This document shows, in pieces, positions 34,599-55,053 of a DNA stretch of 55,053 nt; the stretch's first letter is position 1, and each line of letters opens with the position of its first letter. A program made the translations under genes and the position numbers. The notes beneath the pieces were generated by a model. It was given only the letters and a program-made list of their open reading frames with translations, had not been told where the DNA came from and ran no database searches. This DNA comes from Flavobacteriales bacterium (GTDB taxonomy: Bacteria; Bacteroidota; Bacteroidia; Flavobacteriales_E; Vicingaceae): contig JAJCYO010000053.1 in NCBI GenBank assembly GCA_029262875.1, positions 1 through 55,053 of the forward strand, in the 5' to 3' direction.

Positions 34599-34672
34599 GG
34601 TCTGGTAGTTCAGTTGGTTAGAATACCTGCCTGTCACGCAGGGGGTCGCGGGTTCGAGTCCCGTCCAGACCG
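34599..34672 (+). tRNA. tRNA-Asp (GTC)
   Basis: A 74-base cloverleaf: acceptor stem GGTCTGG pairing with CCAGACC, discriminator G, anticodon GTC inside CTGTCAC, and a T-loop GGTTCGAGTCC. CCA is not encoded. It has its own promoter and terminator and lies at the border of the defence island; tRNA 3' ends are common integration sites. Confidence 0.96.
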
Positions 34673-34686
34673 CTAGTAATAGCGAA

Positions 34687-35651: not shown

Positions 35652-38600
35652 ATGAAGTTTAACGAAGATTCACGGGTTAAAATTCCCACTATTTTACATT
35701 TAGTGAGGTTGGGGTATGAGTACCTTTCTTTGAAGGATGCTGAATGGGATATAGATACCAATATATTTACTGATATTTTCCTAAAAAGTGTACTTAAAAT
35801 CAATGATGGCTTAACGGAAGATGATGCCAAACGATTGTTAGATGAAATTTCTCTTTCATTAGACAATGAAGATTTAGGGAAAGCGTTTTACGAGCGAATA
35901 ACACAGAAATCAGGGGTTAAACTGATTGATTTTGAGAATTTTGATAACAATACCTTTAATGTAGTTACGGAGTTGACCTACAAAAAGGATGAAGATGAAT
36001 TTAGACCAGATGTTATTCTTTTAATCAACGGAATGCCTTTGGCGTTTATTGAAGTAAAGAAACCAAACAATCAAGATGGGATATTAAAGGAGAAGGAACG
36101 CATCAATATGCGTTTTCAGAATAAGAAATTTAGAAAATTTGTGAATATCACTCAATTGATGGTGTTCTCAAATAATATGGAGTATGATGATGGTTCTCCA
36201 TTACCGATTGAAGGAGCTTTTTATGCTTCTTCTTCATATCACAAGCCAATCTTCAATTACTTTCGTGAAGAAGAGAAATTGGATTTAGAACAATTGTTAA
36301 GTCCAGAAGAAGATGCTGTAGAAAATTTTGTTTTAAAAGACAATAATTTAGTTGGCATTAAGAATAGTGAAGAATTTTTGACTAATAAAGATTCCAACAC
36401 TCCAACCAATAGGATTTGTACATCATTGTTTAGTAAAGACCGTTTATCTTTCATTTTAGAATACGCGATTGCTTATGTAAATGAATCCAACGGATTGCAA
36501 AAACACATTATGCGTTACCCTCAGTTGTTTGCAACAAAAGCAATTGAACGAAAATTGGATGAAGGAGTTAATAAAGGAATTATTTGGCATACACAAGGAA
36601 GTGGTAAAACGGCTCTGGCATATTACAACGTAAAACATTTAACGGATTACTATCAAGACAAAGGAATTGTACCAAAGTTTTACTTCATTGTAGATAGATT
36701 AGATTTATTGGTTCAGGCAGGAAAAGAGTTTAGAAGTAGAGGATTGATTGTTCATAATGTAAATTCGAGAGATGAATTTGCACGTACCATTAAATCTACC
36801 CAAGCCATTGAAAATAATTCAGGAAAACCTGAAATTACGGTTGTAAATATTCAAAAGTTTAAAGATGATCCAGATGTAGTTCGGAATACGGATTACAATC
36901 TTAATTTACAACGAGTTTACTTTTTGGATGAAGTACACAGAAGTTATAACCCAAAAGGGAGTTTCTTAGCAAACTTAAGAGAGTCAGATCCTAATTCAAT
37001 TAAAATTGGATTAACTGGAACACCGCTATTAGGAGATGATTTTAACTCTAAATTGTTGTTTGGAGATTACATCCATAAATACTATTATAATGCTTCTATT
37101 GCTGATGGCTATACGCTACGTTTAATCCGTGAAGAAATTGAAACAAGTTATAGTTTAACTTTAAAAGAGGCTTTAGAGAAGATTAAAATTCTACAGGGAA
37201 ATACGGATAAAAAGAAGCTGTATGCTGACCATAGGTTTGTAGAACCAATGTTGGATTACATTGTTACTGATTTTGAAAAAAGTCGAATATCAATGAATGA
37301 TGCAAGTGTTGGAGCAATGGTAATTTGTGATTCCTCTGAGCAAGCCAAAGAGATGTATAAAATCTTTAACGAGAAGTACACTCAAAAGACTGAAACTTTA
37401 GGTTTTGAACCGTTACAAATGGCTGCTGAACCTCAAATGAGTTATGGTGATAAAAAGAAGAATGACATTAAAGTCAAATCTTCTGCTGTAATTCTTCACG
37501 ATGTTGGAACAAAACAAGATCGTAAAGATTGGGTAGATGATTTTAAGGATGGAAAAATTGACATCCTTTTTGTATTCAATATGCTCTTAACAGGGTTTGA
37601 TGCGAAGCGATTAAAGAAATTGTACATAGGACGAGTAATTAAATCCCACAATCTCTTGCAAGCCTTAACGCGTGTAAACAGAACTTACAAAGAGTTTAGG
37701 TATGGTTATGTTGTTGATTTTGCTGATATACAAGGTGAATTTGATAAAACCAATCAAGCGTACTTTAATGAATTACAAGCAGAATTAGGTGACGAAATGC
37801 AGCATTATTCCGATTTGTTTATGTCTCCAGATGAGATTGAGGAGCAGATTGGTGAAATAAAAGATGCTTTATTTCATTTTGATACTAAAAATGCTGAAAA
37901 TTTCTCTAAACAGATTACGCAGATTAAAGACCGTAAGCAAATGTTGGAGATTACGAGGGCGTTGAATAATGCCAAGAGTTTGTATAATCTTATTCGTTTA
38001 TCTGGTAACTATGATTTATTGGAGAAGCTTGATTTTAGAAAACTGACCATTTTATCAAGAGAAGCCAATAATCATTTAGCATTAATCAATACGAAAGAAG
38101 CCTTAGAAAACAATGTGGATACTTCTGATCTGTTAAATACGGCATTAGAGGATGTGATTTTTGCTTTTGCAAAAGTGAAAGAAGAAGAAATGGTGTTGGC
38201 GGATGAATTGAAAAACATCTTACAAAAAACAAGAGAAGGGTTAGCAGGAAATTTCGATCCCAAAGACCCAGTATTTATTTCTTTAAAAGATGAATTAGAA
38301 CGCTTGTTTAAAAAGAAAAATTTAAATGAAGTAACCAAAGAAGAAATGGAGAAAAACATTGAAGCTTTGACTAAGATTCATAAGAAATCGAAAGAATTAG
38401 AAAGAACTAATAATTTAATTAAAGCCAAATATGAAAACGATGCAAAGTACGCTCGAATTCATAAGCGATTAATGGAAAAAGACCCATTAACAGATAGCGA
38501 ACGAAAATTATTTGAGGTACTTTGCGAATTAAAAGAAGAAGTTGATAATCACATTTTACAGAACGCTAAGATTTTAGAGAACGAAAGCTTTGTGGATAAA

Positions 38601-38729
38601 ATGATTTCAAGAATGGTAATAGTTGAATTTAAAAAGAAAAACATACCACTTAACCTTGATAAATCTAAACGAATTATCAATTTGGTAACAAAAGAATATA
38701 TGAACGAGTATCACGGAAGAACAGCGTAG
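35652..38729 (+). CDS. hsdR: type I restriction enzyme, R subunit
   Basis: A 1025-residue HsdR. The N-terminal nuclease domain shows FRPDVILLINGMPLAFIEVK (D...ExK). The SF2 helicase motor has Walker A HTQGSGKTALAY, the DEAD-like box FLDEVHRS and LTGTPLLG. The C-terminal third is a charged helical domain that contacts the methylase. It translocates DNA and cuts away from unmodified sites, with HsdM and HsdS. It is the first gene of an operon, three bases before hsdM. Confidence 0.95.
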   Translation: MKFNEDSRVKIPTILHLVRLGYEYLSLKDAEWDIDTNIFTDIFLKSVLKINDGLTEDDAKRLLDEISLSLDNEDLGKAFYERITQKSGVKLIDFENFDNNTFNVVTELTYKKDEDEFRPDVILLINGMPLAFIEVKKPNNQDGILKEKERINMRFQNKKFRKFVNITQLMVFSNNMEYDDGSPLPIEGAFYASSSYHKPIFNYFREEEKLDLEQLLSPEEDAVENFVLKDNNLVGIKNSEEFLTNKDSNTPTNRICTSLFSKDRLSFILEYAIAYVNESNGLQKHIMRYPQLFATKAIERKLDEGVNKGIIWHTQGSGKTALAYYNVKHLTDYYQDKGIVPKFYFIVDRLDLLVQAGKEFRSRGLIVHNVNSRDEFARTIKSTQAIENNSGKPEITVVNIQKFKDDPDVVRNTDYNLNLQRVYFLDEVHRSYNPKGSFLANLRESDPNSIKIGLTGTPLLGDDFNSKLLFGDYIHKYYYNASIADGYTLRLIREEIETSYSLTLKEALEKIKILQGNTDKKKLYADHRFVEPMLDYIVTDFEKSRISMNDASVGAMVICDSSEQAKEMYKIFNEKYTQKTETLGFEPLQMAAEPQMSYGDKKKNDIKVKSSAVILHDVGTKQDRKDWVDDFKDGKIDILFVFNMLLTGFDAKRLKKLYIGRVIKSHNLLQALTRVNRTYKEFRYGYVVDFADIQGEFDKTNQAYFNELQAELGDEMQHYSDLFMSPDEIEEQIGEIKDALFHFDTKNAENFSKQITQIKDRKQMLEITRALNNAKSLYNLIRLSGNYDLLEKLDFRKLTILSREANNHLALINTKEALENNVDTSDLLNTALEDVIFAFAKVKEEEMVLADELKNILQKTREGLAGNFDPKDPVFISLKDELERLFKKKNLNEVTKEEMEKNIEALTKIHKKSKELERTNNLIKAKYENDAKYARIHKRLMEKDPLTDSERKLFEVLCELKEEVDNHILQNAKILENESFVDKMISRMVIVEFKKKNIPLNLDKSKRIINLVTKEYMNEYHGRTA

Positions 38730-38732
38730 AAG

Positions 38733-40358
38733 ATGACAACAATAGATTTTGAAAATAAAGCGAAAGCTCTAATAGATGACCTGAAAGGAGTTTGTGCCAA
38801 TTATGGATTAGGGAATGATGGGAATGAGTTTAAAATTATAACGCAAGTATTTCTTTACAAGTTCTTAAACGATAAGTTTGCTTATGAGGTAAAACAACTA
38901 GAACCTGCATTAGAAAATGATGACAACTGGCAGGAAACGTTGAGCAATTATCCAAAAGATGATTACCAAATGTTGTTGATGCAAATGAGTGAAGGTACAG
39001 CATTGATACAACCCAATCATTTTATAGCTTCTTTATATCATAAGCAGGATGAACCAGATTTTGCGAAACTGTTTGATGATACTTTATTGGATATTGCTAA
39101 ACTTAACACCGATATTTTCTCTGTAAAAGAAGATGGTGGAGCAAAAGTAATTCTGTTCGATCGTGTAAGTGAATTTGTTACCATTTCTAAACGCGATGCT
39201 TTTTGTAAAGCCATCATAAATAAGCTGATTAACTTTAGTTTTGAGCGTATTTTCCAAGAGAAGTATGATTTTTATGCAACCATTTTTGAATACTTAATTT
39301 CTGATTACAACAAAGATAGTGGAGGTAAATATGCCGAGTATTTTACGCCACATGCAGTAGCCAAAATTATGGCGGCTTGTTTGGTGACGGATGATGTAAA
39401 AAATGTAACTTGTTACGATCCAAGTGCAGGTTCAGGAACCTTATTAATGAATTTAGCTCACGCCATAGGAGAGGATAAGTGTACGATATATTCACAAGAC
39501 ATTTCGCAGAAATCATCTAGTCTGCTACGATTAAACTTGATATTAAATAATCTGGTGCATTCTATCCAGAATATTATACAAGGAAATACTATTTTACACC
39601 CTTACCACAGGCAAGATAATGGGAAGTTAGAACAATTCGATTATATCGTTTCTAATCCACCGTTTAAGCTCGATTTTTCTGATTACAGCGAAGATTTAGA
39701 TACCAAAGCCAATAACGAACGCTTTTTTGCAGGAATACCTAAAGTACCTGCCAAGAAGAAGGACTCTATGGCTATTTACCTGATGTTTTTGCAGCACATT
39801 ATGCACAGCTTAAGTAAAAATGGAAAAGCTGCAATTGTTGTTCCTACAGGTTTTATAACTGCTCAAAGCGGTATTGACAAGAAGATTAGGCAGAAAATGG
39901 TTGAGAGTAAAATGTTAGCAGGAGTAGTAAGTATGCCAAGTAATATTTTTGCTACAACTGGTACTAACGTAAGTATTTTGTTTTTAGATGCTACCAACAA
40001 AGAGGATGTGGTTTTGATTGATGCTTCTAATTTGGGAACTAAAGTTAAAGATAGTAATGGCAATCAAAAAACGCTATTATCTCCTACTGAAGAGCAGCAA
40101 ATAATTGATGTTTTTAATGCTAAAGAAGTTAAAGATGATTTTTCTGTGGTGGTTTCTTATGATGATATTAAAGCAAAAAACTATTCTTTAAGTGCTGGAC
40201 AATATTTTGAAGTGAAGATTGAGTATGTAGATATTTCACATGAGGAATTTTCATTAAAAATGAAAAGCTTTGAAAGTAATTTAGAAAGCTTTTTTTCTGA
40301 ATCTAAAACCTTGGAAAAGGAGATTAAAGGGAATTTGAAAAGTTTGAGGTATGAATAA
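38733..40358 (+). CDS. hsdM: type I restriction enzyme, M subunit (N6-adenine methylase)
   Basis: A 541-residue HsdM: an N-terminal helical domain (residues ~5-150), SAM-binding motif DPSAGSGTLLMN and catalytic NPPF in YIVSNPPFKLDF. The family's N6-adenine methylase protects the host's sites and is needed for restriction by HsdR. Its stop overlaps the hsdS start by eight bases. Confidence 0.95.
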   Translation: MTTIDFENKAKALIDDLKGVCANYGLGNDGNEFKIITQVFLYKFLNDKFAYEVKQLEPALENDDNWQETLSNYPKDDYQMLLMQMSEGTALIQPNHFIASLYHKQDEPDFAKLFDDTLLDIAKLNTDIFSVKEDGGAKVILFDRVSEFVTISKRDAFCKAIINKLINFSFERIFQEKYDFYATIFEYLISDYNKDSGGKYAEYFTPHAVAKIMAACLVTDDVKNVTCYDPSAGSGTLLMNLAHAIGEDKCTIYSQDISQKSSSLLRLNLILNNLVHSIQNIIQGNTILHPYHRQDNGKLEQFDYIVSNPPFKLDFSDYSEDLDTKANNERFFAGIPKVPAKKKDSMAIYLMFLQHIMHSLSKNGKAAIVVPTGFITAQSGIDKKIRQKMVESKMLAGVVSMPSNIFATTGTNVSILFLDATNKEDVVLIDASNLGTKVKDSNGNQKTLLSPTEEQQIIDVFNAKEVKDDFSVVVSYDDIKAKNYSLSAGQYFEVKIEYVDISHEEFSLKMKSFESNLESFFSESKTLEKEIKGNLKSLRYE

Positions 40359-41607
40359 CTGGCGAAGGGTAGATGAGATAATATCATACTATGGTAAGGG
40401 AGTGACACCAAAATATGTCAAGGAAAGTTCGATTATCGTATTGAACCAGAAATGCATTCGAAATAATAACATTGATTATTCATTTGCCAGATATATTGAT
40501 GACAGTAAAACTTATTCCGAAAATAAGTTGTTGAAAGAGGGAGATGTTTTAATAAACTCTACTGGGCAAGGTACGGCAGGGAGAGTCGCTTTTTTAGAGA
40601 AGATCCCTAAAGGGAAAAAGGTTATTGTCGATTCACATATTTTAGTTTTAAGAACGAATGATTATTGGGAATCAAAATGTTTAAACTATAGTCTGTATTC
40701 AATTGAACCTCTATTACAAACATTCTTAGATGGAAGTACAGGACAAGGAGAGTTTGATAAATTAAGAATGTTTAATGTAGAAGTAAATTATAGTCAAGAT
40801 AGCCAAGATCAAAGATCCATAGCCAAAGTCCTTTCCGATTTAGATGCCAAAATCGAACTCAACAATAAAATCAATGCCGAGTTAGAAGCCATGGCTAAAC
40901 TTACTTATGATTATTGGTTTGTACAATTTGATTTCCCAAATAAAAACGGAAAGCCTTACAAGTCTTCTGGTGGTAAAATGGTTTACAATGAAGAATTGAA
41001 AAGAGAGATTCCTGAGGGTTGGGAGGTGAAGAGATTAGAGGAGATTGCTAATATAACAACTGGAAAATTAGATAGTAACGCAGAGGTAGAAAATGGAAGT
41101 TATCACTTTTACACTTGTGCTTCTGAGCCAACTAGAACAGATAGTTTTGCTTTTGATGATTCTGTTATTTTGATTGCAGGGAACAACGCAGCCGGAAATT
41201 TTCATGTAAATAGATATACTGGTAAGTTCAATGCTTATCAAAGAACATACATTGTAACTGCCAAAGAAGAAAAGTATCTGAATTACTTATACCAAATATT
41301 GGTGCTTCAAATGAAACTTCTTAAAAAGAGAGGTAAAGGTTCACAAACCAAATTTATTACTCTGGGAATGCTGACGGAAACACCAATTTTTGATACTAAT
41401 TCAGAAGTAATTGATGCTTTTCATAAAATCTCACACCCAATGTATGAGAAGCAAATGAATATTCTTAATGAAAACCAAAAGCTAGCCGAACTTAGAGATT
41501 GGTTATTGCCAATGTTAATGAATGGGCAGGTTAAAGTTGGTGAGGCTAAGGGAAAAGTACAAATGAATATGGCTGCTGAGTCAGATGTACAGTATAATAA
41601 GGGATAG
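40351..41607 (+). CDS. hsdS: type I restriction enzyme, S (specificity) subunit
   Basis: A 418-residue HsdS with two target-recognition domains (about residues 1-145 and 215-360), each followed by a helical spacer: IAKVLSDLDAKIELNNKINA in the middle and QNILNENQKLAELRDWLL-like at the end. The TRDs set the two half-sites of the recognition sequence and differ widely among strains. No second hsdS copy or invertase is nearby, so no shuffling is indicated. Confidence 0.93.
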   Translation: MNNWRRVDEIISYYGKGVTPKYVKESSIIVLNQKCIRNNNIDYSFARYIDDSKTYSENKLLKEGDVLINSTGQGTAGRVAFLEKIPKGKKVIVDSHILVLRTNDYWESKCLNYSLYSIEPLLQTFLDGSTGQGEFDKLRMFNVEVNYSQDSQDQRSIAKVLSDLDAKIELNNKINAELEAMAKLTYDYWFVQFDFPNKNGKPYKSSGGKMVYNEELKREIPEGWEVKRLEEIANITTGKLDSNAEVENGSYHFYTCASEPTRTDSFAFDDSVILIAGNNAAGNFHVNRYTGKFNAYQRTYIVTAKEEKYLNYLYQILVLQMKLLKKRGKGSQTKFITLGMLTETPIFDTNSEVIDAFHKISHPMYEKQMNILNENQKLAELRDWLLPMLMNGQVKVGEAKGKVQMNMAAESDVQYNKG

Positions 41608-41609
41608 AA

Positions 41610-42344
41610 ATGATAGCGCCTGTTCAAATATGCAAAACGGTTTTATCTCGTCTATCTGCAATGGATTTTGAGAAAGAAGGAGGTAGTTCGTCTGAACAAC
41701 TTATTTTCCCTAAAAAAATTCAAGCAAAAGGAACTAAACATAAAAATAGAATTTCGGAGCAAGAGCTTCGTTTTTTGTTTATTGAGGAATTTAAAAAAAG
41801 TAATCCTGAACTATTTTACTCTATTGAAACACCTACAATAGGTAAATTTAATTTCGGGAAATCATACGATACAATAAAGTCTGCTAAGGATGGACAATCA
41901 GCATCCCTTGATATGTGCGTATTCGCAAGATCTTTGGGTAGTTATAACCGTATTCTAAATATAGAATTCAAGCATAAAAATGCTGCGATAAAAAAAATAG
42001 GGAAAGATATTCTAAAATTAATTCAAGAAAATCAAAACGGAGCATTTATTCATTTGCTTGATAATACGAACATCAGTACTTTTTGTAATAATAGAGAAAC
42101 AGGTTTATTCAATAAGTTTTATAAGTCATTTTCAGATTTTAAAATAGGGTGGAGCAATAATGATAAATATATCCATTTGGTCATTATTTCATTAAAGCAA
42201 GAAACTATAATTCACCGGAAGATATATAGAGCAGATTTAAATATTCTAAAAGACATTTTTTTTATTGAAAGTGGTAGTAAAAAATTGAAAGATATAAATT
42301 GTAAAGGTTGGCAAGTTGAAGCAATAAAAAAATGCCATGAATAG
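41610..42344 (+). CDS. putative PD-(D/E)XK nuclease-fold protein in the hsd operon
   Basis: A 244-residue protein, two bases after hsdS, so probably a fourth gene of the same operon. I do not recognise the family. The segment SASLDMCVFARSLGSYNRIL followed by NIEFKHKN gives Asp101...Glu119-x-Lys121, the order of a PD-(D/E)XK core. The acidic residues at ~50-60 (ISEQELRFLFIEEF) would fit the helix with the first glutamate. It could be an extra nuclease, a modification-dependent partner or an unrelated passenger. The nuclease reading is inference. Confidence 0.6.
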   Translation: MIAPVQICKTVLSRLSAMDFEKEGGSSSEQLIFPKKIQAKGTKHKNRISEQELRFLFIEEFKKSNPELFYSIETPTIGKFNFGKSYDTIKSAKDGQSASLDMCVFARSLGSYNRILNIEFKHKNAAIKKIGKDILKLIQENQNGAFIHLLDNTNISTFCNNRETGLFNKFYKSFSDFKIGWSNNDKYIHLVIISLKQETIIHRKIYRADLNILKDIFFIESGSKKLKDINCKGWQVEAIKKCHE

Positions 42345-42423: not shown

Positions 42424-45400
42424 ATGAATATATTAAAATCGTTACCAAGAGAAAAGTTTTTAAACCTTATCGCAACTATAATTAATAGCGAACATAATTA
42501 TAATCTGGAATTAGATAAAGCTCCAACATTTAAAAGACATATTTTACAGCAAGGTTATGGTTCTAATCGAGCAAGTAATAAAGTTATAGTTGAAGTTAAA
42601 GATTTCGATATTTCTCATTTCGAACTGCTAAATAGAGAAGTCAATGGAACAAACTCATTTATTAATCAGCGAAATCCGAATAGGTACATAGTCATCATTC
42701 CTGAATATTTAACTCCTGAAATAGAAGAGCAATACAAGAGCAATCTAAATACTATAGGGAGAAAACAAATTGAGATCTGGGATGCGGGTTATATCGATGG
42801 CTTAATAGAACGTAATTTTGAAGTTTATCGAAATTCAGTTACTACATGGAATGAAGTTTACGAAGAAATCAATAAGCTTTTATATAATTTTTATCAAAAA
42901 AATAATAGTGATCCAAAAGAAGCAGGTGAAAAGTTATATGCACAATGTCGAAAGTTTCCTGGGTTTATTAAATTAAATTTATGGATTAGGAAATTTTCAA
43001 ATAGTTATGGAATAACGAGCCTTGATCCGTTTCACGTTTTGTTTTCGATTAATGCCGCAAAATTATCATACGAAAGTAGAATAAAGAGAATAAACTCTTT
43101 TCTTAAGATATTAGATGGTAAAGAATTGGATAAAGAGGTTTTGTTTGCTGGTTGTCCGAGTCCTATAGTAACAAAAATACTATCTTCTCGAAAGTTTAAA
43201 GAGCAAGAGGAAATTTGGACTTTTTTCAGTAAATTATTTAAGAACAAAACGACTGGTATAGATGAGGCTACTTTTAGAATGTTTCCTGAATGGAACGGAA
43301 TCCAAATCCGTTCCTTTACCATGTTTCTTTTTTGGTTTGATTCTAATAAATATTTACCGCTAGACTCAAATGTAAGTACTTTCATTGTAGCTAAAGGAAT
43401 AAGGAATGCTCCCCCTATAAACCATCATGGATATAATTCATTATTAGAAGATATTGACAAATTAAATAGTGATTATCAGATCAACTATAAGTATGGAAGA
43501 ACAGGTTTGAATCGAGAGTTGACTCATGTAGCTTATCAGATTGTTTCAGAAGGAAAGAAAGATGTTTTTTATTCAAAAAATTTTCAATCATTAATCAATG
43601 GTGGCTGGAAGAGAACTAAGGCTGCTGTAGCAATAAAAGAAGTTGTTGTTAAAAAGTCTCAAAAGGATTTTTTAAAAATTAACAAGCCTGTTTCTAATCA
43701 TCTACAAAGGGATCAAAACAATTTAGGAGCTCTAAGTTTCAAATTAATTGCAATTAGACCGTTGGATACCTGTGATAAAAAATTATTAAAGATCTTAGGT
43801 AATAAGCAGGTGGCAGGTAAAACCTATCACTTTGAAAAATCCATTGAAATTTCGGAGGACATTATTAAGTATTATCCAGAACGCGAGATGAGTCTGTATC
43901 ATTCTCGTGATGAAACCCCCATAAATGTTAGTGCGATTGTTGGCAAGAATGGTTCAGGAAAAAGCACTTTAATTGAACTTCTTTTTGGGGTGTTAAATAA
44001 TGTGGCATTCTTGTATAATAAGAAATTGAAAACGAGTAAGCTTGAAAAACTGGATGGGTTAGAAGCAGAATTATACTATTTGAACTATGGTATACTTAAC
44101 AAGATTCTGGTAACGAGTGATGAAGTTAAAATTCAAAAATATAGACTTAATAAAGGTGAGTTTAAGAAGTATAATAGACTACGGAAGTTTAAATATGAAG
44201 ATTTAGGGGAGTTCTTTTACACCATAGCAGTGAATTATTCTATTTATGGGTTAAATAAAAGAGAATTAGGTAATTGGATTGATGGACTATTTCATAAGAA
44301 TGATGGATATCAAACACCCATTGTAATTAACCCCATGCGAGAAGATGGTGTAATTGATATCAACAAAGAGAATGATCTATTACAAACTAGGTTTATGGCA
44401 AATTTACTTGAGCCGATGGATGAAGGCGAAATTGGTTTTAAACAAGTTACTGATAGACAAAGAGCTTTCCGCATTGATTTAAAACGAATACCTGGGAAAA
44501 ATAAGATTCTGTATTTTGATGAAAATGACAATGGTGTCCTCTTTAAAGTAATTAAAAAGGATTACGATAATATTTGGGAAAATGTAATTAGTGTTTTTGG
44601 CCTCAAAAACTCAAAAATTGATGAGAAATTAATTGTAGTTAAGGACACTAAAAAATACATAGTACGTAAGTTAGTGCGAATTGCCTTAAGGTATTTTAAA
44701 GCTGAGAAGTATTTTGATATAAGTACCAATGAATTTGATGAAGATAAATTAGAAACTTTTTTAATTGAACTCAGGGATAATCCAAGCCATATAACAGACA
44801 AGTTAATGCAAGCAATTAACTACTTGAAATATAAAGAAGTTTGGCCTAAAGAAAATTCATTTCAAATAGATTTGGAAAAAGAACTTCAAGGGTTCTCTAA
44901 TGTCCTTTCAACTGAAGGAATTAGGACAGTAGAATTAATTCCGCCTCCAATTTTTCAATACAAGATTAAATTGAAAGGTGAGAATAATCGAAAAAGTGAT
45001 TTGGAAAAGCTTAGTAGTGGAGAGAAACAACTCATTCATTCTACAAGTTCTTTAATTTATCATCTTCGCAATATCGATTCAGTTGTAGAAGGTTCTGGAA
45101 GGATGAAGTATAAAAATGTCCATTTGTGTTTAGATGAAATTGAACTATATTATCATCCTGAAATGCAAAGATGTTATCTAAACCAACTTTTACAATCATT
45201 GAAAAGAGTGGAGCTTCCGAACATACAAGCTCTTAGCATAAGCCTGGTTACACATTCACCATACATACTTTCCGATATTCCTTCGAATTATACATTAAGA
45301 ATGGGTGAGTTAGAGCAAACAGGTTTAAGTCAGAATACGTTTGGTGCAAATATCCATCAATTACTACGTGCTGATTTTTTTCTAGAAAATGGATTTATGG

Positions 45401-45708
45401 GCGAGTTTTCGCAAGAAACAATTAAGAATTCGATTGCATATTTCAGTTATCATATAAATGATAGAGAGTTAAAAAGTTTATCAAAAAAATATAAAGGTGT
45501 TCGCTTTAAAAGTATTCCTGAATATGTAGAATTGAAGAAAAAAGCTCTTAAAGCTGAAAATGAACATCTAAATGAAAAGCTAAATGTTGATTTTTCATTA
45601 GGCATGAAGGAGCATCATGAAAAAGTAATTGAGATAATTGGAGAAGAAGTACTTAAGAATAAATTAATGGAAATGAAAGAATTAGCTTTCGAGAAAAAAT
45701 ATGATTAA
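42424..45708 (+). CDS. Mrr-like/SMC-type ATPase fusion, Septu-like
   Basis: A 1094-residue protein. Residues 1-150 resemble an Mrr-type restriction domain (SLPREKFLNLIATII near the start, VIVEVKD with E57-x-K59, IEIWDAGYIDGLIE), though the usual catalytic Asp is not evident. Residues ~160-400 form a helical domain with FLFWFDSNKYLPLDSN. The ATPase follows: Walker A GKNGSGKST (~507), signature LSSGEKQLI, Walker B HLCLDEIELYYHPE (~902) and the switch His in SLVTHSPYIL. This ATPase class (AAA_15/RecF-like) drives Septu PtuA, retron and PARIS-like defences. Its end overlaps the start of an HNH nuclease gene by eight bases, as PtuA pairs with PtuB. The extra N-terminus makes it about twice the usual PtuA length. 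Confidence 0.82.
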   Translation: MNILKSLPREKFLNLIATIINSEHNYNLELDKAPTFKRHILQQGYGSNRASNKVIVEVKDFDISHFELLNREVNGTNSFINQRNPNRYIVIIPEYLTPEIEEQYKSNLNTIGRKQIEIWDAGYIDGLIERNFEVYRNSVTTWNEVYEEINKLLYNFYQKNNSDPKEAGEKLYAQCRKFPGFIKLNLWIRKFSNSYGITSLDPFHVLFSINAAKLSYESRIKRINSFLKILDGKELDKEVLFAGCPSPIVTKILSSRKFKEQEEIWTFFSKLFKNKTTGIDEATFRMFPEWNGIQIRSFTMFLFWFDSNKYLPLDSNVSTFIVAKGIRNAPPINHHGYNSLLEDIDKLNSDYQINYKYGRTGLNRELTHVAYQIVSEGKKDVFYSKNFQSLINGGWKRTKAAVAIKEVVVKKSQKDFLKINKPVSNHLQRDQNNLGALSFKLIAIRPLDTCDKKLLKILGNKQVAGKTYHFEKSIEISEDIIKYYPEREMSLYHSRDETPINVSAIVGKNGSGKSTLIELLFGVLNNVAFLYNKKLKTSKLEKLDGLEAELYYLNYGILNKILVTSDEVKIQKYRLNKGEFKKYNRLRKFKYEDLGEFFYTIAVNYSIYGLNKRELGNWIDGLFHKNDGYQTPIVINPMREDGVIDINKENDLLQTRFMANLLEPMDEGEIGFKQVTDRQRAFRIDLKRIPGKNKILYFDENDNGVLFKVIKKDYDNIWENVISVFGLKNSKIDEKLIVVKDTKKYIVRKLVRIALRYFKAEKYFDISTNEFDEDKLETFLIELRDNPSHITDKLMQAINYLKYKEVWPKENSFQIDLEKELQGFSNVLSTEGIRTVELIPPPIFQYKIKLKGENNRKSDLEKLSSGEKQLIHSTSSLIYHLRNIDSVVEGSGRMKYKNVHLCLDEIELYYHPEMQRCYLNQLLQSLKRVELPNIQALSISLVTHSPYILSDIPSNYTLRMGELEQTGLSQNTFGANIHQLLRADFFLENGFMGEFSQETIKNSIAYFSYHINDRELKSLSKKYKGVRFKSIPEYVELKKKALKAENEHLNEKLNVDFSLGMKEHHEKVIEIIGEEVLKNKLMEMKELAFEKKYD

Positions 45709-46762
45709 TCTTAATTATCAAAATATTGATTTAGATAAAGCTCGAAAAGAACATTTCGATTTTTTTGCATGCTTTATTACCAAGAAGTTAACAGGTAAGA
45801 ACTGTTGTGTGTCAAGTCGAAATAAGTCCCATCCTTCCAGATTACCAGTTTGTAAAGACTATAAGAATAAGAAATTTAACTTCAAAAATCATAAGGACTT
45901 AGTAAGGAAATTCTTAATTACGGAAGGACATTTAGAAGACTTAATATTGGGAAAACCAAAGAGACTTATGGAACTCAATGATGAGTTTATTAAAAGAGTT
46001 GACAAGCATTTTGGATCAGGTATTTATGAAGAGTATATTGAGTTAGATTCAGGTAGTCGATCCAAATTTAGAATAGTTAAAGTTCACCAATTTTTCGAAG
46101 ATCTTGCAACCGTTATTAAATACAAGATTTTGTCAGATGATAAAGATTATAATTCTTACACATTAACTAATAATTTGGGAGTTCGTAGTTGCACTTATTG
46201 TAACAGAACATATACAGTAACTCAGCGAAAAAGAAAAAATAAAAAAGATGGAAGATTGATGAGTCCTCAATTAGATCATTGGTTTCCACAAAGTGACTAT
46301 CCGCTGTTACAGATTTCATTTCACAATTTAATTCCTAGTTGCGAAATATGTAACAGTAGGGTTAAGAACGACACTCTTTTTAATCTTAACGATCATTTCC
46401 ATCCTTATCAAAAGAACGAGGCATCAATTAAGTTTGGTTATCGCTATAGTTTCTTGAAAGAGAAATATCAAATTTATTTTAAAGATTATTCGGATGATAA
46501 GATTTTAGAAACATGTAAGAAAATGTGTATCGATCAGATGTATGATGGACATGGGGAAGAATTAGATGACTTAATAACGATAAAGGAGGAATATTCAGAA
46601 ACTTACTTAGACAGCCTTAAAGCGACCTTTCCTAAGGCCAATTTAACGGATGAACTGATTTACCGGTTAGCTTTTGGAGTTGAGCTAAATAAAGCAGATT
46701 TTCACAAGCGTCCAATGAGTAAATTCAAACATGATATACTTAAAGAACTTAAAATAATATAA
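45701..46762 (+). CDS. HNH endonuclease, PtuB-like partner of the ATPase
   Basis: A 353-residue protein. The HNH core is GVRSCTYCNRTY (zinc Cys164/167), SPQLDHWFPQSDYP (Asp192-His193), LISFHNLIPSCEICNSRV (His/Asn208-209, zinc Cys214/217, Asn218). The N-terminus also has clustered cysteines (KNCCVSS). HNH enzymes cut DNA or RNA with one metal ion. It starts inside the ATPase gene and is translationally coupled. In Septu the ATPase controls such a nuclease; the same division of labour is inferred here. Confidence 0.85.
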   Translation: MINLNYQNIDLDKARKEHFDFFACFITKKLTGKNCCVSSRNKSHPSRLPVCKDYKNKKFNFKNHKDLVRKFLITEGHLEDLILGKPKRLMELNDEFIKRVDKHFGSGIYEEYIELDSGSRSKFRIVKVHQFFEDLATVIKYKILSDDKDYNSYTLTNNLGVRSCTYCNRTYTVTQRKRKNKKDGRLMSPQLDHWFPQSDYPLLQISFHNLIPSCEICNSRVKNDTLFNLNDHFHPYQKNEASIKFGYRYSFLKEKYQIYFKDYSDDKILETCKKMCIDQMYDGHGEELDDLITIKEEYSETYLDSLKATFPKANLTDELIYRLAFGVELNKADFHKRPMSKFKHDILKELKII

Positions 46763-46769
46763 TTGTGAT

Positions 46770-47360
46770 ATGAATTTAGATGAAATCAAAACACAACCAA
46801 AAGAACCTAACCAGCAATTTGTTGTTGGAGATAAAATGTTAGATTTTAAATTGGTAGATTTTTGGAAATGGGGTTTATCTGATTTAATCGAAAATAGGAA
46901 TAGGGGCGTTTTAGCAGAGTTTATTGTAAAACAAGCATTAGAAGTAAAAAGTAATACGAGGTTAGAATGGGATGCTTTTGATTTGGAGACTGAGAAAGGA
47001 ATAAAAATTGAGGTTAAGTCTGCGGCTTACATTCAAGTATGGCAACAAAATAATTACTCGAAGATAAGTTTTGGTATTGCTCCAACAAAAACATTATTAG
47101 ATGATAATAACTATTCTGATACTTTAAAAAGACATGCTGATGTTTATGTGTTTTGTTTACTTCATCATGAAGAACAGGAGACCATAAATCCGATGAATCT
47201 CAATCAATGGACGTTTTATTTGGTAAAGACTGCAACATTAGATGAAAAAATTCCAAAACAAAAATCCATTACTTTATCTTCAATTAAATTGCTTGAACAT
47301 GAGAAGTGTAGTTATAGTGAATTAAAAGAAAAGTTTCATCAAATTACGAAAGAGTTATGA
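46770..47360 (+). CDS. PD-(D/E)XK nuclease-fold protein
   Basis: A 196-residue protein, seven bases after the HNH gene and overlapping the DUF2779 gene by ATGA. The core LEWDAFDLETEKGIKIEVKS supplies Asp68/Asp71 and Glu81-x-Lys83; Glu51 (GVLAEFIV) would complete a PD-(D/E)XK site. The flanking QVWQQNNYSKISFGI is the next strand. Proteins of this look occur in defence islands without a set function. It might process the DNA cut by the HNH protein or act with the DUF2779 nuclease; both are inference. Confidence 0.65.
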   Translation: MNLDEIKTQPKEPNQQFVVGDKMLDFKLVDFWKWGLSDLIENRNRGVLAEFIVKQALEVKSNTRLEWDAFDLETEKGIKIEVKSAAYIQVWQQNNYSKISFGIAPTKTLLDDNNYSDTLKRHADVYVFCLLHHEEQETINPMNLNQWTFYLVKTATLDEKIPKQKSITLSSIKLLEHEKCSYSELKEKFHQITKEL

Positions 47361-51539: not shown

Positions 51540-52186
51540 TGAATAAAGTAATTAAAGATATTGATCAGGCACTTTTGTCTTATCCATTACTTAAACGTGT
51601 AGAGGAAGAAGGGTTTGTAAGAGTGATTGGATGGATTCCCTTACTTCATCCTGAGCAGGGTGAATTTGATAGATATAATGTTTCTATACGTTTTCCTGAT
51701 ATCTACCCTAGATGTTTTCCAAAAGTAATTGAGACTAGTAAAAAGATACCTAGAAAAGACTTTAGGCATGTAAATCCTGACCAAACATTATGTTTAGCTG
51801 TTGAACCAGAAGAAAAAGCAATAGTTAAAAATGGAATTCGATTCAAATATTTTTTAGATAAAGTACTCGTCCCTCATTTAGCTAGAGAAACTTTTCGAGA
51901 AATCAATGAGGCTTATCCAGATGGTGAATATGCCCATGGGAGTAATGGTGTATGGGAATTTTATGAATCAGTTTTAGAAGTAAAGAATAGGAGTTTAATC
52001 ATTAGCGAATTAGAAAGTATTATCTTTTCAAAATGGCAAAGCAGAAACGAACGGTGCAATTGTGGTAGTGGGAAAAAATTCAAAAAATGCCATCTTGAAA
52101 AGTGGAATAGAATAATGAAATCAGGACGTGAATACATTCTTGAAAAGATAAAAGAATTAAAAATTGACATAGATGAAAAAGATTGA
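51539..52186 (+). CDS. E2-like ubiquitin-conjugating-fold protein with SEC-C motif
   Basis: A 215-residue protein of the UBC-fold type used by CBASS (E2-only, 'type II short'). The fold's strands are VIGWIPLLHP and YNVSIRFPDIYPRCFPKV. The active-site cysteine is probably Cys85 in HVNPDQTLCLAVEP, with His78 before it. Residues 173-185 form a SEC-C zinc motif, CNCGSGKKFKKCH. No E1 or JAB gene is in the window. In type II CBASS an E2 links the CD-NTase C-terminus to a target; here one E2 without E1 must use another route. Start ATG 51539; a TTG at 51533 is in frame. Confidence 0.85.
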   Translation: MNKVIKDIDQALLSYPLLKRVEEEGFVRVIGWIPLLHPEQGEFDRYNVSIRFPDIYPRCFPKVIETSKKIPRKDFRHVNPDQTLCLAVEPEEKAIVKNGIRFKYFLDKVLVPHLARETFREINEAYPDGEYAHGSNGVWEFYESVLEVKNRSLIISELESIIFSKWQSRNERCNCGSGKKFKKCHLEKWNRIMKSGREYILEKIKELKIDIDEKD

Positions 52187-52904
52187 TGTTAGAGAACTCT
52201 TTTTAGATCAACAAAAGGAGATGATTACGAATTTGGAAAAAATAAGGAAACACACAATTAATCATGCACCAACTACTGGTGATGCAAGTGAAGGGGCTTG
52301 GGCAGAATGGTTAAGGAATTATTTACCCAATAGGTATAATGTTGATCGTGCAATAGTAGTTAGTAGTGAAGGCTTTGAAAGTGATGCAATAGATATTGTA
52401 ATTTACGATCAACAGTATTCTCCATTTGTGTGGTTTCAAGAAGGAATTAAAAAGATTCCTGCTGAGAGTGTATATGCTGTTATAGAGTGTAAGCAAGACA
52501 TAAGTAAAGGACAGATAGAATATGCCTCTGATAAGGCTAAATCTGTTCGTGAGTTATTTAGAACTGTTGCTCCAGTTGTAGATCGAGGAGAAAGTTATAC
52601 GCCCCCTCCTTTATTTGAAATTTTAGCAGGTGTTATTACCTTAGAAAATACTTGGGCTGATACTATAAAAGATTCAAAAAGTTTTAGCTCAGTTATCTCA
52701 AATCTGTCTGGGAAGGGAGTTTTAGACTTTGGTTGTGTGTTGAATGACAGATCGTTTATTGTTGATGGTGATGATATCCATTATAGTGATCCAGAAGAAA
52801 GTCTAATATTCTTTTTTACAAATCTTTTTAATAAGTTACAGAAATTAGGAACAGTACGACCAATAGACATGATGCAATATTTAAAGCATCTAAAATCAAA
52901 GTAA
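52173..52904 (+). CDS. DUF6602 nuclease-fold protein
   Basis: A 243-residue protein with ESDAIDIVIYD (Asp74) and YAVIECKQDI (Glu105-x-Lys107), the PD-(D/E)XK order. The N-terminal part GDASEGAWAEWLRNYLP would carry the helix with the first acid. The family is known only as DUF6602. It overlaps the E2-like gene by 14 bases, so it is made together with it. In a CBASS-like operon the effector is usually a nuclease or a membrane protein; this is a natural candidate for a nuclease effector, though no ligand-binding domain (SAVED) is visible. Confidence 0.75.
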   Translation: MKKIDVRELFLDQQKEMITNLEKIRKHTINHAPTTGDASEGAWAEWLRNYLPNRYNVDRAIVVSSEGFESDAIDIVIYDQQYSPFVWFQEGIKKIPAESVYAVIECKQDISKGQIEYASDKAKSVRELFRTVAPVVDRGESYTPPPLFEILAGVITLENTWADTIKDSKSFSSVISNLSGKGVLDFGCVLNDRSFIVDGDDIHYSDPEESLIFFFTNLFNKLQKLGTVRPIDMMQYLKHLKSK

Positions 52905-54065: not shown

Positions 54066-55053
54066 TTACTTCTGCAAAATCCTAAGTAAATCGTTATTGA
54101 TGTAGAATACTTCTCTACCATCTTCTTTTGAAGAGAGGACACCTAGATTAATTAGTTCTTTGATGTATTTTGATAGGGTAGTTCTACTTTTCACTCCTGT
54201 TATTTCTCCAATAATTTTTTGTTTAATGTATGGTTGGGAAAATAACATCTGATTTAGCTCTATAGAATACCATTTTAGTTTAGGTTTTATAGATTTAAAT
54301 GTAGCCTCCATTTGTTCTAAAATTTCATCTATTACCTGATTTGTTTGTTGAGAAGTATATAGAACAGCATTTAACATATACTCTATCCATAATTTCCAAT
54401 CTTGTCGTTGTGTAACAGCAGATAGTGCGTAGTAGTAATCATCTTTATTTTCGATAATGTATTTACTCAAATACAATACAGGATGAGAAATTAAACCTTG
54501 ACTAACTAAATAAAGTAGATTAATAACTCTGCCTGTTCTACCATTTCCATCCGAAAAAGGGTGTATAGCCTCAAATTGGTAATGAGCTATTGCCATTTTT
54601 AATAATGGGTCTATTGTTTTGTCATTATTCAAAAAATCAATTAGGTTATCTAATTTCTTTTCAATAATTCCTTCTCCTCGTGGGGGAGTATAAATTACCT
54701 CTCCAGGTCGGAATTCGCTTTGACCTCTTTTTATCACAACTTGTGAGTGTGGAGGTCTAATTCCTTGCGTAGTGTCTTTTATTTTTTGAAAAACGCTAAT
54801 AATTACTTCTTCATCTAAATTTCCTTTATCCTTTAGGTTCTGAAAACCTTCCCATAACGCTTCTCTATACCTTAAAACCTCTTTGGTTGAAGGATTTGCT
54901 ACTTGCTCTTTAATAGTGTCTGAAACGGCTTTATACAGCTCGTCCTCGGTTGTAAAGATGTTTTCTATTGCGGTTGAACTTTGTGCTTCCTGTAATGCTA
55001 TGGTATTAATTAGCATTGTTGGATTAGGTATTCGTAATATGTTCTTATTTAAC
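54066..55053 (-). CDS. Fic family protein (partial, runs off the window)
   Basis: The Fic core HPFSDGNGRTGR is intact, so it should transfer AMP or another nucleotide phosphate to a protein hydroxyl. The inhibitory helix motif SSTAIEN, (S/T)xxxE(G/N), precedes it, as in class II Fic proteins. A winged helix follows at the C-terminus (SRTTLSKYIKELINLGVL). The first ATG is at 55016, but the frame stays open to the window end and reads LRIPNPT, the usual sequence just before LINTIALQEA in this family, so the real start lies beyond 55053. It converges on the NTase gene and ends the visible defence island. Confidence 0.88.
   Translation of the reverse strand, partial: LNKNILRIPNPTMLINTIALQEAQSSTAIENIFTTEDELYKAVSDTIKEQVANPSTKEVLRYREALWEGFQNLKDKGNLDEEVIISVFQKIKDTTQGIRPPHSQVVIKRGQSEFRPGEVIYTPPRGEGIIEKKLDNLIDFLNNDKTIDPLLKMAIAHYQFEAIHPFSDGNGRTGRVINLLYLVSQGLISHPVLYLSKYIIENKDDYYYALSAVTQRQDWKLWIEYMLNAVLYTSQQTNQVIDEILEQMEATFKSIKPKLKWYSIELNQMLFSQPYIKQKIIGEITGVKSRTTLSKYIKELINLGVLSSKEDGREVFYINNDLLRILQK

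What the first reader, a model, noticed from the sequence alone, without database searches (positions are those of the whole stretch)
42424..46762. Septu-like pair with an added Mrr-type N-terminus and middle helical domain
Septu (PtuA ATPase + PtuB HNH) is matched in layout and by gene overlap, but the ATPase is 1094 residues and has an Mrr-like domain (E57-x-K59) and a helical segment with YLPLDSN. The unit may combine two nuclease activities controlled by one ATPase. The apparent lack of a clear catalytic Asp in the Mrr-like domain raises the option that it only binds DNA.
Basis: partly seen in the sequence, partly recalled or inferred. Interest (0 to 1): 0.65.

Follow-up and report, generated by a model that had tools for sequence, protein, structure and literature searches.

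The report
Defence ATPase with glycosylase-like DNA sensor
This looks like a two-gene bacterial anti-phage system of the Septu kind (an ATPase plus a nuclease) whose ATPase carries an extra front part resembling a dead restriction enzyme joined to a DNA-repair-like domain that it shares with restriction systems against modified DNA.

Summary
In detail: a 1094-aa ABC-type ATPase (42424-45708) overlaps by 8 bp a 353-aa HNH gene (45701-46762), behind a type I restriction operon. The pair is Septu-like; the best-matching models are PADLOC candidate PDC-M62, ahead of PtuAB. Residues 1-436 are an added module: relatives begin at residue ~437. Residues ~3-142 are homologous to the Mrr_cat domain; the Asp motif is gone and E57-x-K59 is left, so a second nuclease is unlikely. 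The 'helical segment' (~142-376) is homologous to the N-terminal domain of McrB and FRG proteins. Two AlphaFold models (sharing one set of sequences) match mainly HhH-GPD DNA glycosylases, but with low Z (5.8 and 5.3), and sequence profiles show no significant link to glycosylases. D314 of YLPLDSN falls near the glycosylase Asp. A second genome, in another family, has this domain on an M62 ATPase (879 aa, 35% identity) with an HNH gene, without the Mrr part, 17 bp behind a short-pAgo gene. Best reading: a DNA sensor, perhaps for unusual bases, drives an ATPase-HNH effector. Trigger, cut target and base excision are untested. New variant of a known kind; I found no description of the glycosylase-like domain of McrB proteins in the library searched.

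The parts
42424..45708 (+). ATPase gene, 1094 aa (PDC-M62A core with 436-aa N-terminal addition)
42424..42846 (+). domain 1, residues 1-141: Mrr_cat-like (restriction-endonuclease-like) domain, catalytic Asp motif lost
   Evidence: hhalign vs 10 Mrr_cat-type N-termini prob 91.8, E 7e-7, residues 3-142; BLASTP with Rhizobium protein L035, itself Pfam Mrr_cat 5.1e-6; no direct Pfam hit
42541..42567 (+). residues 40-48 (ILQQGYGSN), about where the relatives have GxDxGxD; no Asp here
   Evidence: alignment (placement within a few residues uncertain)
42592..42600 (+). E57-x-K59, the remaining half of the PD-(D/E)xK motif
42847..43551 (+). domain 2, residues 142-376: homologous to the N-terminal domain of McrB/FRG proteins; predicted HhH-GPD-glycosylase-like fold
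43285..43371 (+). residues 288-316: hairpin NGIQ and YLPLD314SN; D314 (43363-43365) near the place of the glycosylase Asp
   Evidence: profile alignments, not significant; D in 29 and N in 6 of 35 rows
43552..43734 (+). linker 377-437
   Evidence: mostly missing in the second genome
43735..45705 (+). PDC-M62A ABC-type ATPase core, residues 438-1094
43942..43968 (+). Walker A GKNGSGKST
45010..45030 (+). ABC signature LSSGEKQ
45124..45144 (+). Walker B LCLDEIE
45247..45264 (+). H-loop VTHSPY
45701..46762 (+). HNH nuclease gene, 353 aa (PDC-M62B), overlapping the ATPase gene by 8 bp
46190..46354 (+). HNH core C164xxC ... D192-H193 ... N209 ... C214xxCN
35652..41607 (+). type I restriction operon hsdR, hsdM, hsdS upstream (one small gene lies between it and the ATPase)
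41610..42344 (+). 244-aa gene between hsdS and the ATPase; PD-(D/E)xK-like by eye only (SLD..IEFKHK)
   Evidence: no family match better than E 0.04
46770..47360 (+). 196-aa gene 7 bp after the HNH gene; PD-(D/E)xK-like by eye only (WDAFD..IEVKS)
   Evidence: no family match

Best explanation
A two-gene anti-phage module. Domain 2 (glycosylase-like, shared with McrB proteins) together with a catalytically dead Mrr-type domain reads DNA, most likely an unusual (modified or damaged) base flipped into its pocket. The ABC-type ATPase core couples this to the HNH protein, which then cuts nucleic acid (DNA, or tRNA as in E. coli Septu). It follows a type I restriction system on the same strand and would cover phages whose modified DNA escapes it. 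Shown here by sequence: the domain make-up, intact ATPase and HNH motifs, loss of the Mrr Asp motif, homology of domain 2 to McrB/FRG N-termini, recurrence in a second genome. Suggested by models, not proven: the glycosylase fold. Inferred: DNA binding, base reading, signal transfer, the cut target, anti-phage function.
For: PDC-M62A/B matches; the added module ends at the native start of relatives; domain 2 homologous to N-termini of McrB/FRG proteins, in which other N-terminal domains (EVE, DUF3578) are described as specificity modules (PMC7641849 and PMC11090510, passages); two models both resembling HhH-GPD glycosylases: 43 of the 50 Foldseek rows shown and 39 of 50 VIA rows for the window model, 49 of 50 and 50 of 50 for the relative L069 at pLDDT 96, many rows being entries of the same few proteins; Asp in 29 of 35 rows, Asn in 6; domain 1 homologous to Mrr_cat with the Asp motif lost; second genome with domain 2 + ATPase + HNH at 35% identity; HNH H-to-N spacing 16 (H193, N209), as between the PtuB residues H75 and N91, mutated among others with loss of Septu immunity (PMC13096335, passage).
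Against: Structural scores are low: best Foldseek E 0.086 and 0.051, best VIA Z 5.8 and 5.3, under the Z 8 that the tool advises; for the window model unrelated chains follow at Z 4.7 and 4.6. The two models are not independent: both alignments use the same rows. Profile comparison with Nth/MutY/AlkA sets is not significant (hhalign probability at most 1.4), and Pfam gives no glycosylase hit for residues 1-460. The window's hairpin reads GIQ, not GVG, and the Lys that follows the hairpin in 12 of 35 rows is absent there; the Asp is Asn in 6 of 35. The Mrr part of the model is poor (pLDDT 35-61 over residues 1-140). No activity of a PDC-M62 system was tested, and the one held paper with that name only counts it (passages).
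Confidence: 0.55

Rival explanations
1. Guard of a neighbouring defence system: the ATPase-HNH pair watches the type I restriction complex (or another system next door) and fires when a phage inhibitor disables it; the N-terminal part is mainly a docking surface.
For: In 10 of 14 related pairs a restriction gene is directly upstream: HsdR in L021, a type ISP gene in L022, HsdS in L023 and L026-L032, in 9 of the 10 overlapping or within 10 bp. The window pair follows hsdRMS and one small gene. The second domain-2 pair starts 17 bp behind a short-pAgo gene, itself preceded by an argonaute-associated TIR gene.
Against: Of the other four, L020 and L025 have non-restriction genes upstream, L024 meets a contig end, and L033's upstream genes were not scanned. 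Partners differ (type I, ISP, pAgo), and domain 2 is found on McrB and FRG proteins, which fits DNA sensing better than docking to one partner. Seven of the ten (L026-L032) match only parts of the M62A profile or of the window ATPase, so they are more distant relatives.
Confidence: 0.25
2. Two active nucleases (Mrr plus HNH) under one ATPase.
For: Homology of domain 1 to Mrr_cat and a kept E57-x-K59.
Against: The GxDxGxD motif kept in 10 of 10 relatives aligned is missing in the window; the second domain-2 pair has no Mrr domain.
Confidence: 0.06
3. A helical accessory part without base recognition: domain 2 is a general DNA-binding or oligomerisation domain of defence ATPases and only looks like a glycosylase.
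For: Low structural Z, non-significant profile scores, Lys not conserved and Asp sometimes Asn.
Against: The matched folds are almost all from one superfamily in both searches; hairpin-to-Asp spacing is 19-20 residues in the rows I counted, against 20 in the Nth and MutY sequences (my count on the sequences printed).
Confidence: 0.14

Closest known systems
PADLOC phage-defence candidate PDC-M62 (M62A ATPase + M62B HNH)
   Same: ATPase core and HNH protein are the best matches; same gene order (relatives)
   Different: The M62A models matched are 597-746 positions long; the window protein has 436 extra N-terminal residues
Septu (PtuA/PtuB)
   Same: ABC-type ATPase plus HNH, overlapping genes, same HNH H-to-N spacing; M62 and Septu models can call the same loci (PMC11811056, passages)
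   Different: Weaker match than M62; two extra N-terminal domains. An E. coli Septu cuts tRNA-Tyr (PMC13096335, passages); target unknown here
   Same: Domain 2 fused to an M62A ATPase, 35% identical over 142-1089, with M62B HNH
   Different: No Mrr-like domain; behind an argonaute-associated TIR gene and a short-pAgo gene instead of a type I system
McrB / EVE-McrB (type IV restriction) N-terminal domain
   Same: Domain 2 is homologous
   Different: There it precedes an AAA_5-type domain, with McrC in annotated cases; here an ABC-type ATPase with HNH
HhH-GPD DNA glycosylases (Ogg2, Nth, MutY, AlkA)
   Same: Predicted fold and approximate Asp position of domain 2
   Different: No significant sequence score, Lys not conserved, activity untested
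Brig1/Brig2/Brig3 defence DNA glycosylases
   Same: Defence by recognising modified bases in phage DNA (PMC13160076, passages)
   Different: That paper relates Brig1 and Brig3 to uracil-DNA glycosylases and describes base excision as their defence; here another predicted fold is linked to an ATPase-HNH

Membership tests
PDC-M62 | ATPase matches PDC-M62A | tested here: met
   PDLC04737 E 2.7e-35 over residues 500-1009
PDC-M62 | adjacent HNH protein matches PDC-M62B | tested here: met
   PDLC04743 E 2.4e-48 over residues 47-352
PDC-M62 | anti-phage activity | not testable with these tools
   candidate family; needs phage challenge
Septu (PtuAB) | best match is PtuA / PtuB | tested here: not met
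   PtuA 3.5e-12 and PtuB 6.9e-6 rank behind M62A/B; NCBIfam PtuB 13.1 bits against cut-off 150. M62 and Septu models overlap in a survey, so this says 'variant', not 'unrelated'
Septu (PtuAB) | ABC-type ATPase plus HNH in adjacent genes with intact motifs | tested here: met
Septu (PtuAB) | tRNA cleavage on infection (E. coli Septu) | not testable with these tools
   needs experiment
TIGR04435 restriction system-associated AAA | curated score cut-off | tested here: not met
   40.9 bits against 300
Mrr_cat-type nuclease domain | homology to the domain | tested here: met
   hhalign 91.8, E 7e-7; 10 shuffles at most 1.0; no direct Pfam hit
Mrr_cat-type nuclease domain | catalytic Asp of D...(E/Q)xK | tested here: not met
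   10 of 10 relatives have GxDxGxD, window has no Asp there
McrB N-terminal domain (LFWxxPxxYLPLDS type) | homology over the domain | tested here: met
   hhalign 95.5, E 1.5e-8 over residues 197-350
McrB proteins | AAA_5-type GTPase and McrC partner | tested here: not met
   ABC-type ATPase and HNH partner instead
HhH-GPD DNA glycosylases | Pfam PF00730 sequence match | tested here: not met
   no such hit for residues 1-150, 151-404 or 1-460; the own genome's two PF00730 matches lie on other contigs
HhH-GPD DNA glycosylases | fold | tested here: inconclusive
   most structural neighbours shown are of this superfamily, but Z is at most 5.8
HhH-GPD DNA glycosylases | catalytic Asp after the hairpin | tested here: inconclusive
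   D314 aligns with it in two non-significant profile alignments; D 29, N 6 of 35; no residue-level superposition was available
HhH-GPD DNA glycosylases | base excision | not testable with these tools
   needs assay

The most novel reading that the evidence does not exclude
Domain 2 is a working or base-flipping HhH-GPD-type glycosylase domain that type IV restriction proteins and this Septu-like ATPase share as a common reader of modified phage bases. In the window system it excises or exposes the odd base, and the ATPase then fires the HNH nuclease: a glycosylase-triggered Septu.
Probability: 0.2. Interest if true: 0.85.

Novelty: new variant of a known kind. Interest (0 to 1): 0.6.

Why it matters
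What triggers Septu-like ATPase-HNH systems is, to my knowledge (recalled), poorly understood. A natural fusion to a domain shared with McrB proteins names a testable trigger: DNA with unusual bases. It also points to an un-annotated, glycosylase-like domain on McrB and FRG proteins (domain 2 in 9 of 296 genomes of the phylum, the window included), different from EVE, DUF3578 and the UDG-related Brig enzymes.

Tried and rejected
Single-protein scans with residues 1-460 found no relative in viral contigs, genome contigs or phages, and only the own genome among 46 of the order; 395 genomes of the phylum gave the own one and one weak hit, which opened the McrB link; plasmids gave one hit at E 0.05, which opened the Mrr_cat link. 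Pfam on the N-terminal pieces gave only one chance-level hit, PRESAN at 0.34; no sequence match in solved structures. A3 found nothing in viral contigs. The first structure alignment A6 was dropped because the Mrr row L074 was misaligned, so domain 1 was folded without relatives. Profile comparison with Nth, MutY and AlkA sets was not significant and is not used as proof. Considered and rejected: two active nucleases (Asp motif lost); a retron effector (TIGR02646 and NCBIfam PtuB far under cut-off; no retron was searched for). The weak G522 match was dropped: no related protein was seen in the fetched stretch. The fusion first looked unique; the class-wide search overturned that for domain 2, while the Mrr-like addition was seen only in the window. 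No call names the host; Bacteroidota is my guess, and no 16S gene was found in the assembly. Row choices: one search counted 35 rows (two near-identical pairs; L038 and the later L171 not included); L069 is called McrB-type by resemblance to L034 and L060, was not scanned, and its ORF ends before any GTPase part.
Full report
WHAT IS THERE. The window holds two overlapping genes, an ATPase of 1094 aa (42424-45708) and an HNH protein of 353 aa (45701-46762). They lie in a run of same-strand genes after a tRNA-Asp (34599-34673): hsdR, hsdM, hsdS (35652-41607), a 244-aa gene, the pair, a 196-aa gene, a DUF2779 gene and a WYL-domain gene. The ABC ATPase motifs and the Cys-rich HNH core are intact.

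THE CORE. PADLOC places the ATPase core (residues 500-1009) in PDC-M62A (2.7e-35) and the HNH protein in PDC-M62B (2.4e-48); PtuA and PtuB follow at 3.5e-12 and 6.9e-6. Searching 296 genomes of the phylum with the HNH protein gave 16 with a match. I fetched the surroundings of 14 (L020-L033; the own genome and G161 left out): all 14 have an ATPase gene directly upstream (12 by BLAST, L026, L033). Searching with one M62A model gave 42 of 296 genomes and 60 matches; seven genomes match at E <= 6e-34 (G186, G066, G084, G057, G012, G000, G002), all seven also in the HNH list; the longest open frame other than the window's 1096 is 726 codons; at most 4 candidates per genome were scored. Of L020-L025, eight proteins were scanned and all match M62A or M62B (for L022, L023 and L024 only the ATPase, for L025 only the HNH protein). 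A survey of the Bacillus cereus group reports PDC-M62 and Septu models calling the same loci (PMC11811056, passages), so M62 is best seen as a branch of the Septu kind.

THE ADDITION. L020 and L025 begin with FKLLSIRPL and FKLLAIRPL, which align with the window at about residue 437. Residues 1-436 are an added module of two domains.

DOMAIN 1 (about 3-142). A plasmid search gave one faint match, to a Rhizobium protein (E 0.05; pairwise 2e-8) whose N-terminus is Pfam Mrr_cat followed by nSTAND3. A profile of ten such N-termini (nine from plasmids, one from a viral contig) matches window residues 3-142 with hhalign probability 91.8 and E 7e-7; ten shuffles reach at most 1.0, and three other window proteins at most 0.2. 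All ten rows keep GxDxGxD before (Q)xK; the window keeps E57-x-K59 but has no Asp in the motif region. A dead, DNA-binding nuclease fold is the likely reading. The AlphaFold model is poor here (pLDDT 35-61 over residues 1-140).

DOMAIN 2 (about 142-376). A faint match to an EVE-McrB-type protein (L034) led to a family of N-terminal domains of McrB and FRG proteins on plasmids (25 records, 17 of them Deinococcus), viral contigs and genomes. hhalign of seven such domains against the window protein gives probability 95.5, E 1.5e-8, residues 197-350. A profile that includes the window finds it in 9 of 296 genomes of the phylum, the window's included. Of the other eight, L034 and L061 carry AAA_5, L065 has no Pfam hit, and five were read by eye as McrB-like; none of the eight looks like an M62 ATPase.

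FOLD OF DOMAIN 2. The window model (residues 1-420, 20-row alignment) is confident over about 141-350, with a dip to 63-68 at 181-200. Foldseek gives nothing at E <= 0.001, best 0.086, but 43 of the 50 rows shown are HhH-GPD DNA glycosylases. VIA gives M. jannaschii Ogg at Z 5.8 over 163 residues (rmsd 4.4) and S. solfataricus Ogg 5.0; 39 of the 50 rows shown are of that superfamily, while unrelated chains follow at 4.7 and 4.6. A model of the relative L069 from the same rows has pLDDT 96.1 and pTM 0.92; 49 of 50 Foldseek rows shown (best E 0.051) and 50 of 50 VIA rows shown (best Z 5.3 over 143 residues, rmsd 4.7) are HhH-GPD proteins. Many rows are entries of the same few proteins (OGG1, MutY), and Z below 8 may be only a common arrangement, so the fold is likely, not shown. 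Profile alignments with Nth, MutY and AlkA proteins are not significant (probability at most 1.4), yet two of them put D314 on the catalytic Asp. The column of D314 holds D in 29 and N in 6 of 35 rows; a Lys follows the hairpin in 12 of 35, not in the window. A reader of odd bases is more likely than a strict enzyme.

RECURRENCE. A class-wide profile search (395 genomes, 5 with a match) found a second domain-2 fusion: in G623 (another family) an 879-aa protein, 35% identical to window residues 142-1089 (E 6e-164), starting near the residue matching W142, with the Asp kept, without the Mrr-like part, followed by its HNH gene. Of the other matches, G158 and G581 are McrB-like (by eye) and G522 is a weak one that led nowhere. 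Domain 2 with an M62 ATPase is thus a repeated combination; the Mrr-like domain is a further addition seen only in the window.

NEIGHBOURS. In 10 of 14 related pairs the gene directly upstream belongs to a restriction system: HsdR in L021, type ISP in L022, HsdS in L023 and L026-L032. L020 and L025 have other genes, L024 meets a contig end, and the upstream genes of L033 were not scanned. The G623 pair starts 17 bp after a short-pAgo gene, which follows an argonaute-associated TIR gene. These modules ride behind other defence systems, which feeds the guard rival.

LITERATURE. An E. coli Septu cuts tRNA-Tyr and needs both ATPase and HNH residues (PMC13096335, passages). EVE and DUF3578 are described as specificity modules of McrB proteins (PMC7641849, PMC11090510, passages). 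Brig1 and Brig3 are defence glycosylases related to uracil-DNA glycosylases (PMC13160076, passages). PMC12839542 was searched for 'glycosylase', 'HhH' and 'McrB' without a hit. No held paper contains both McrB and HhH as whole words; the listings show none that, by title and abstract start, describes this domain. 'PDC-M62' is in one held paper. Nothing was read beyond the passages named.

VERDICT. A Septu-like M62 pair with a sensor-like N-terminus: a dead Mrr-type domain plus a glycosylase-like domain shared with McrB proteins. New variant of a known kind.

Noticed in passing
L171:1684-5270 (= L173:12184-15773): The second domain-2/M62A/M62B pair starts 17 bp after a short-pAgo gene with an argonaute-associated TIR gene before it (SPARTA-like, name recalled).
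   Followed up: partly
L026-L032: More distant ATPase-HNH pairs sit directly behind hsdS, most with overlapping genes: a restriction-linked Septu-like group.
   Followed up: partly
L036:2998-4482 and L067:991-2514: The glycosylase-like domain is also fused to FRG domains (Parabacteroides plasmid, Paludibacter MAG).
   Followed up: no
window:41610-42344 and window:46770-47360: Small genes on either side of the pair look like PD-(D/E)xK nucleases by eye; no convincing family hit.
   Followed up: no
window:47357-50329: DUF2779 protein (weak Cas4 match, E 0.036) followed by a WYL-domain protein.
   Followed up: no
window:52173-55016: DUF6602 gene (52173-52904) and a Fic-family gene (54066-55016, minus strand) further on.
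   Followed up: no
L059, L060, L061, L066, L037, L039: In these six domain-2 proteins the glycosylase-type Asp is Asn, which points to base reading rather than excision there.
   Followed up: no
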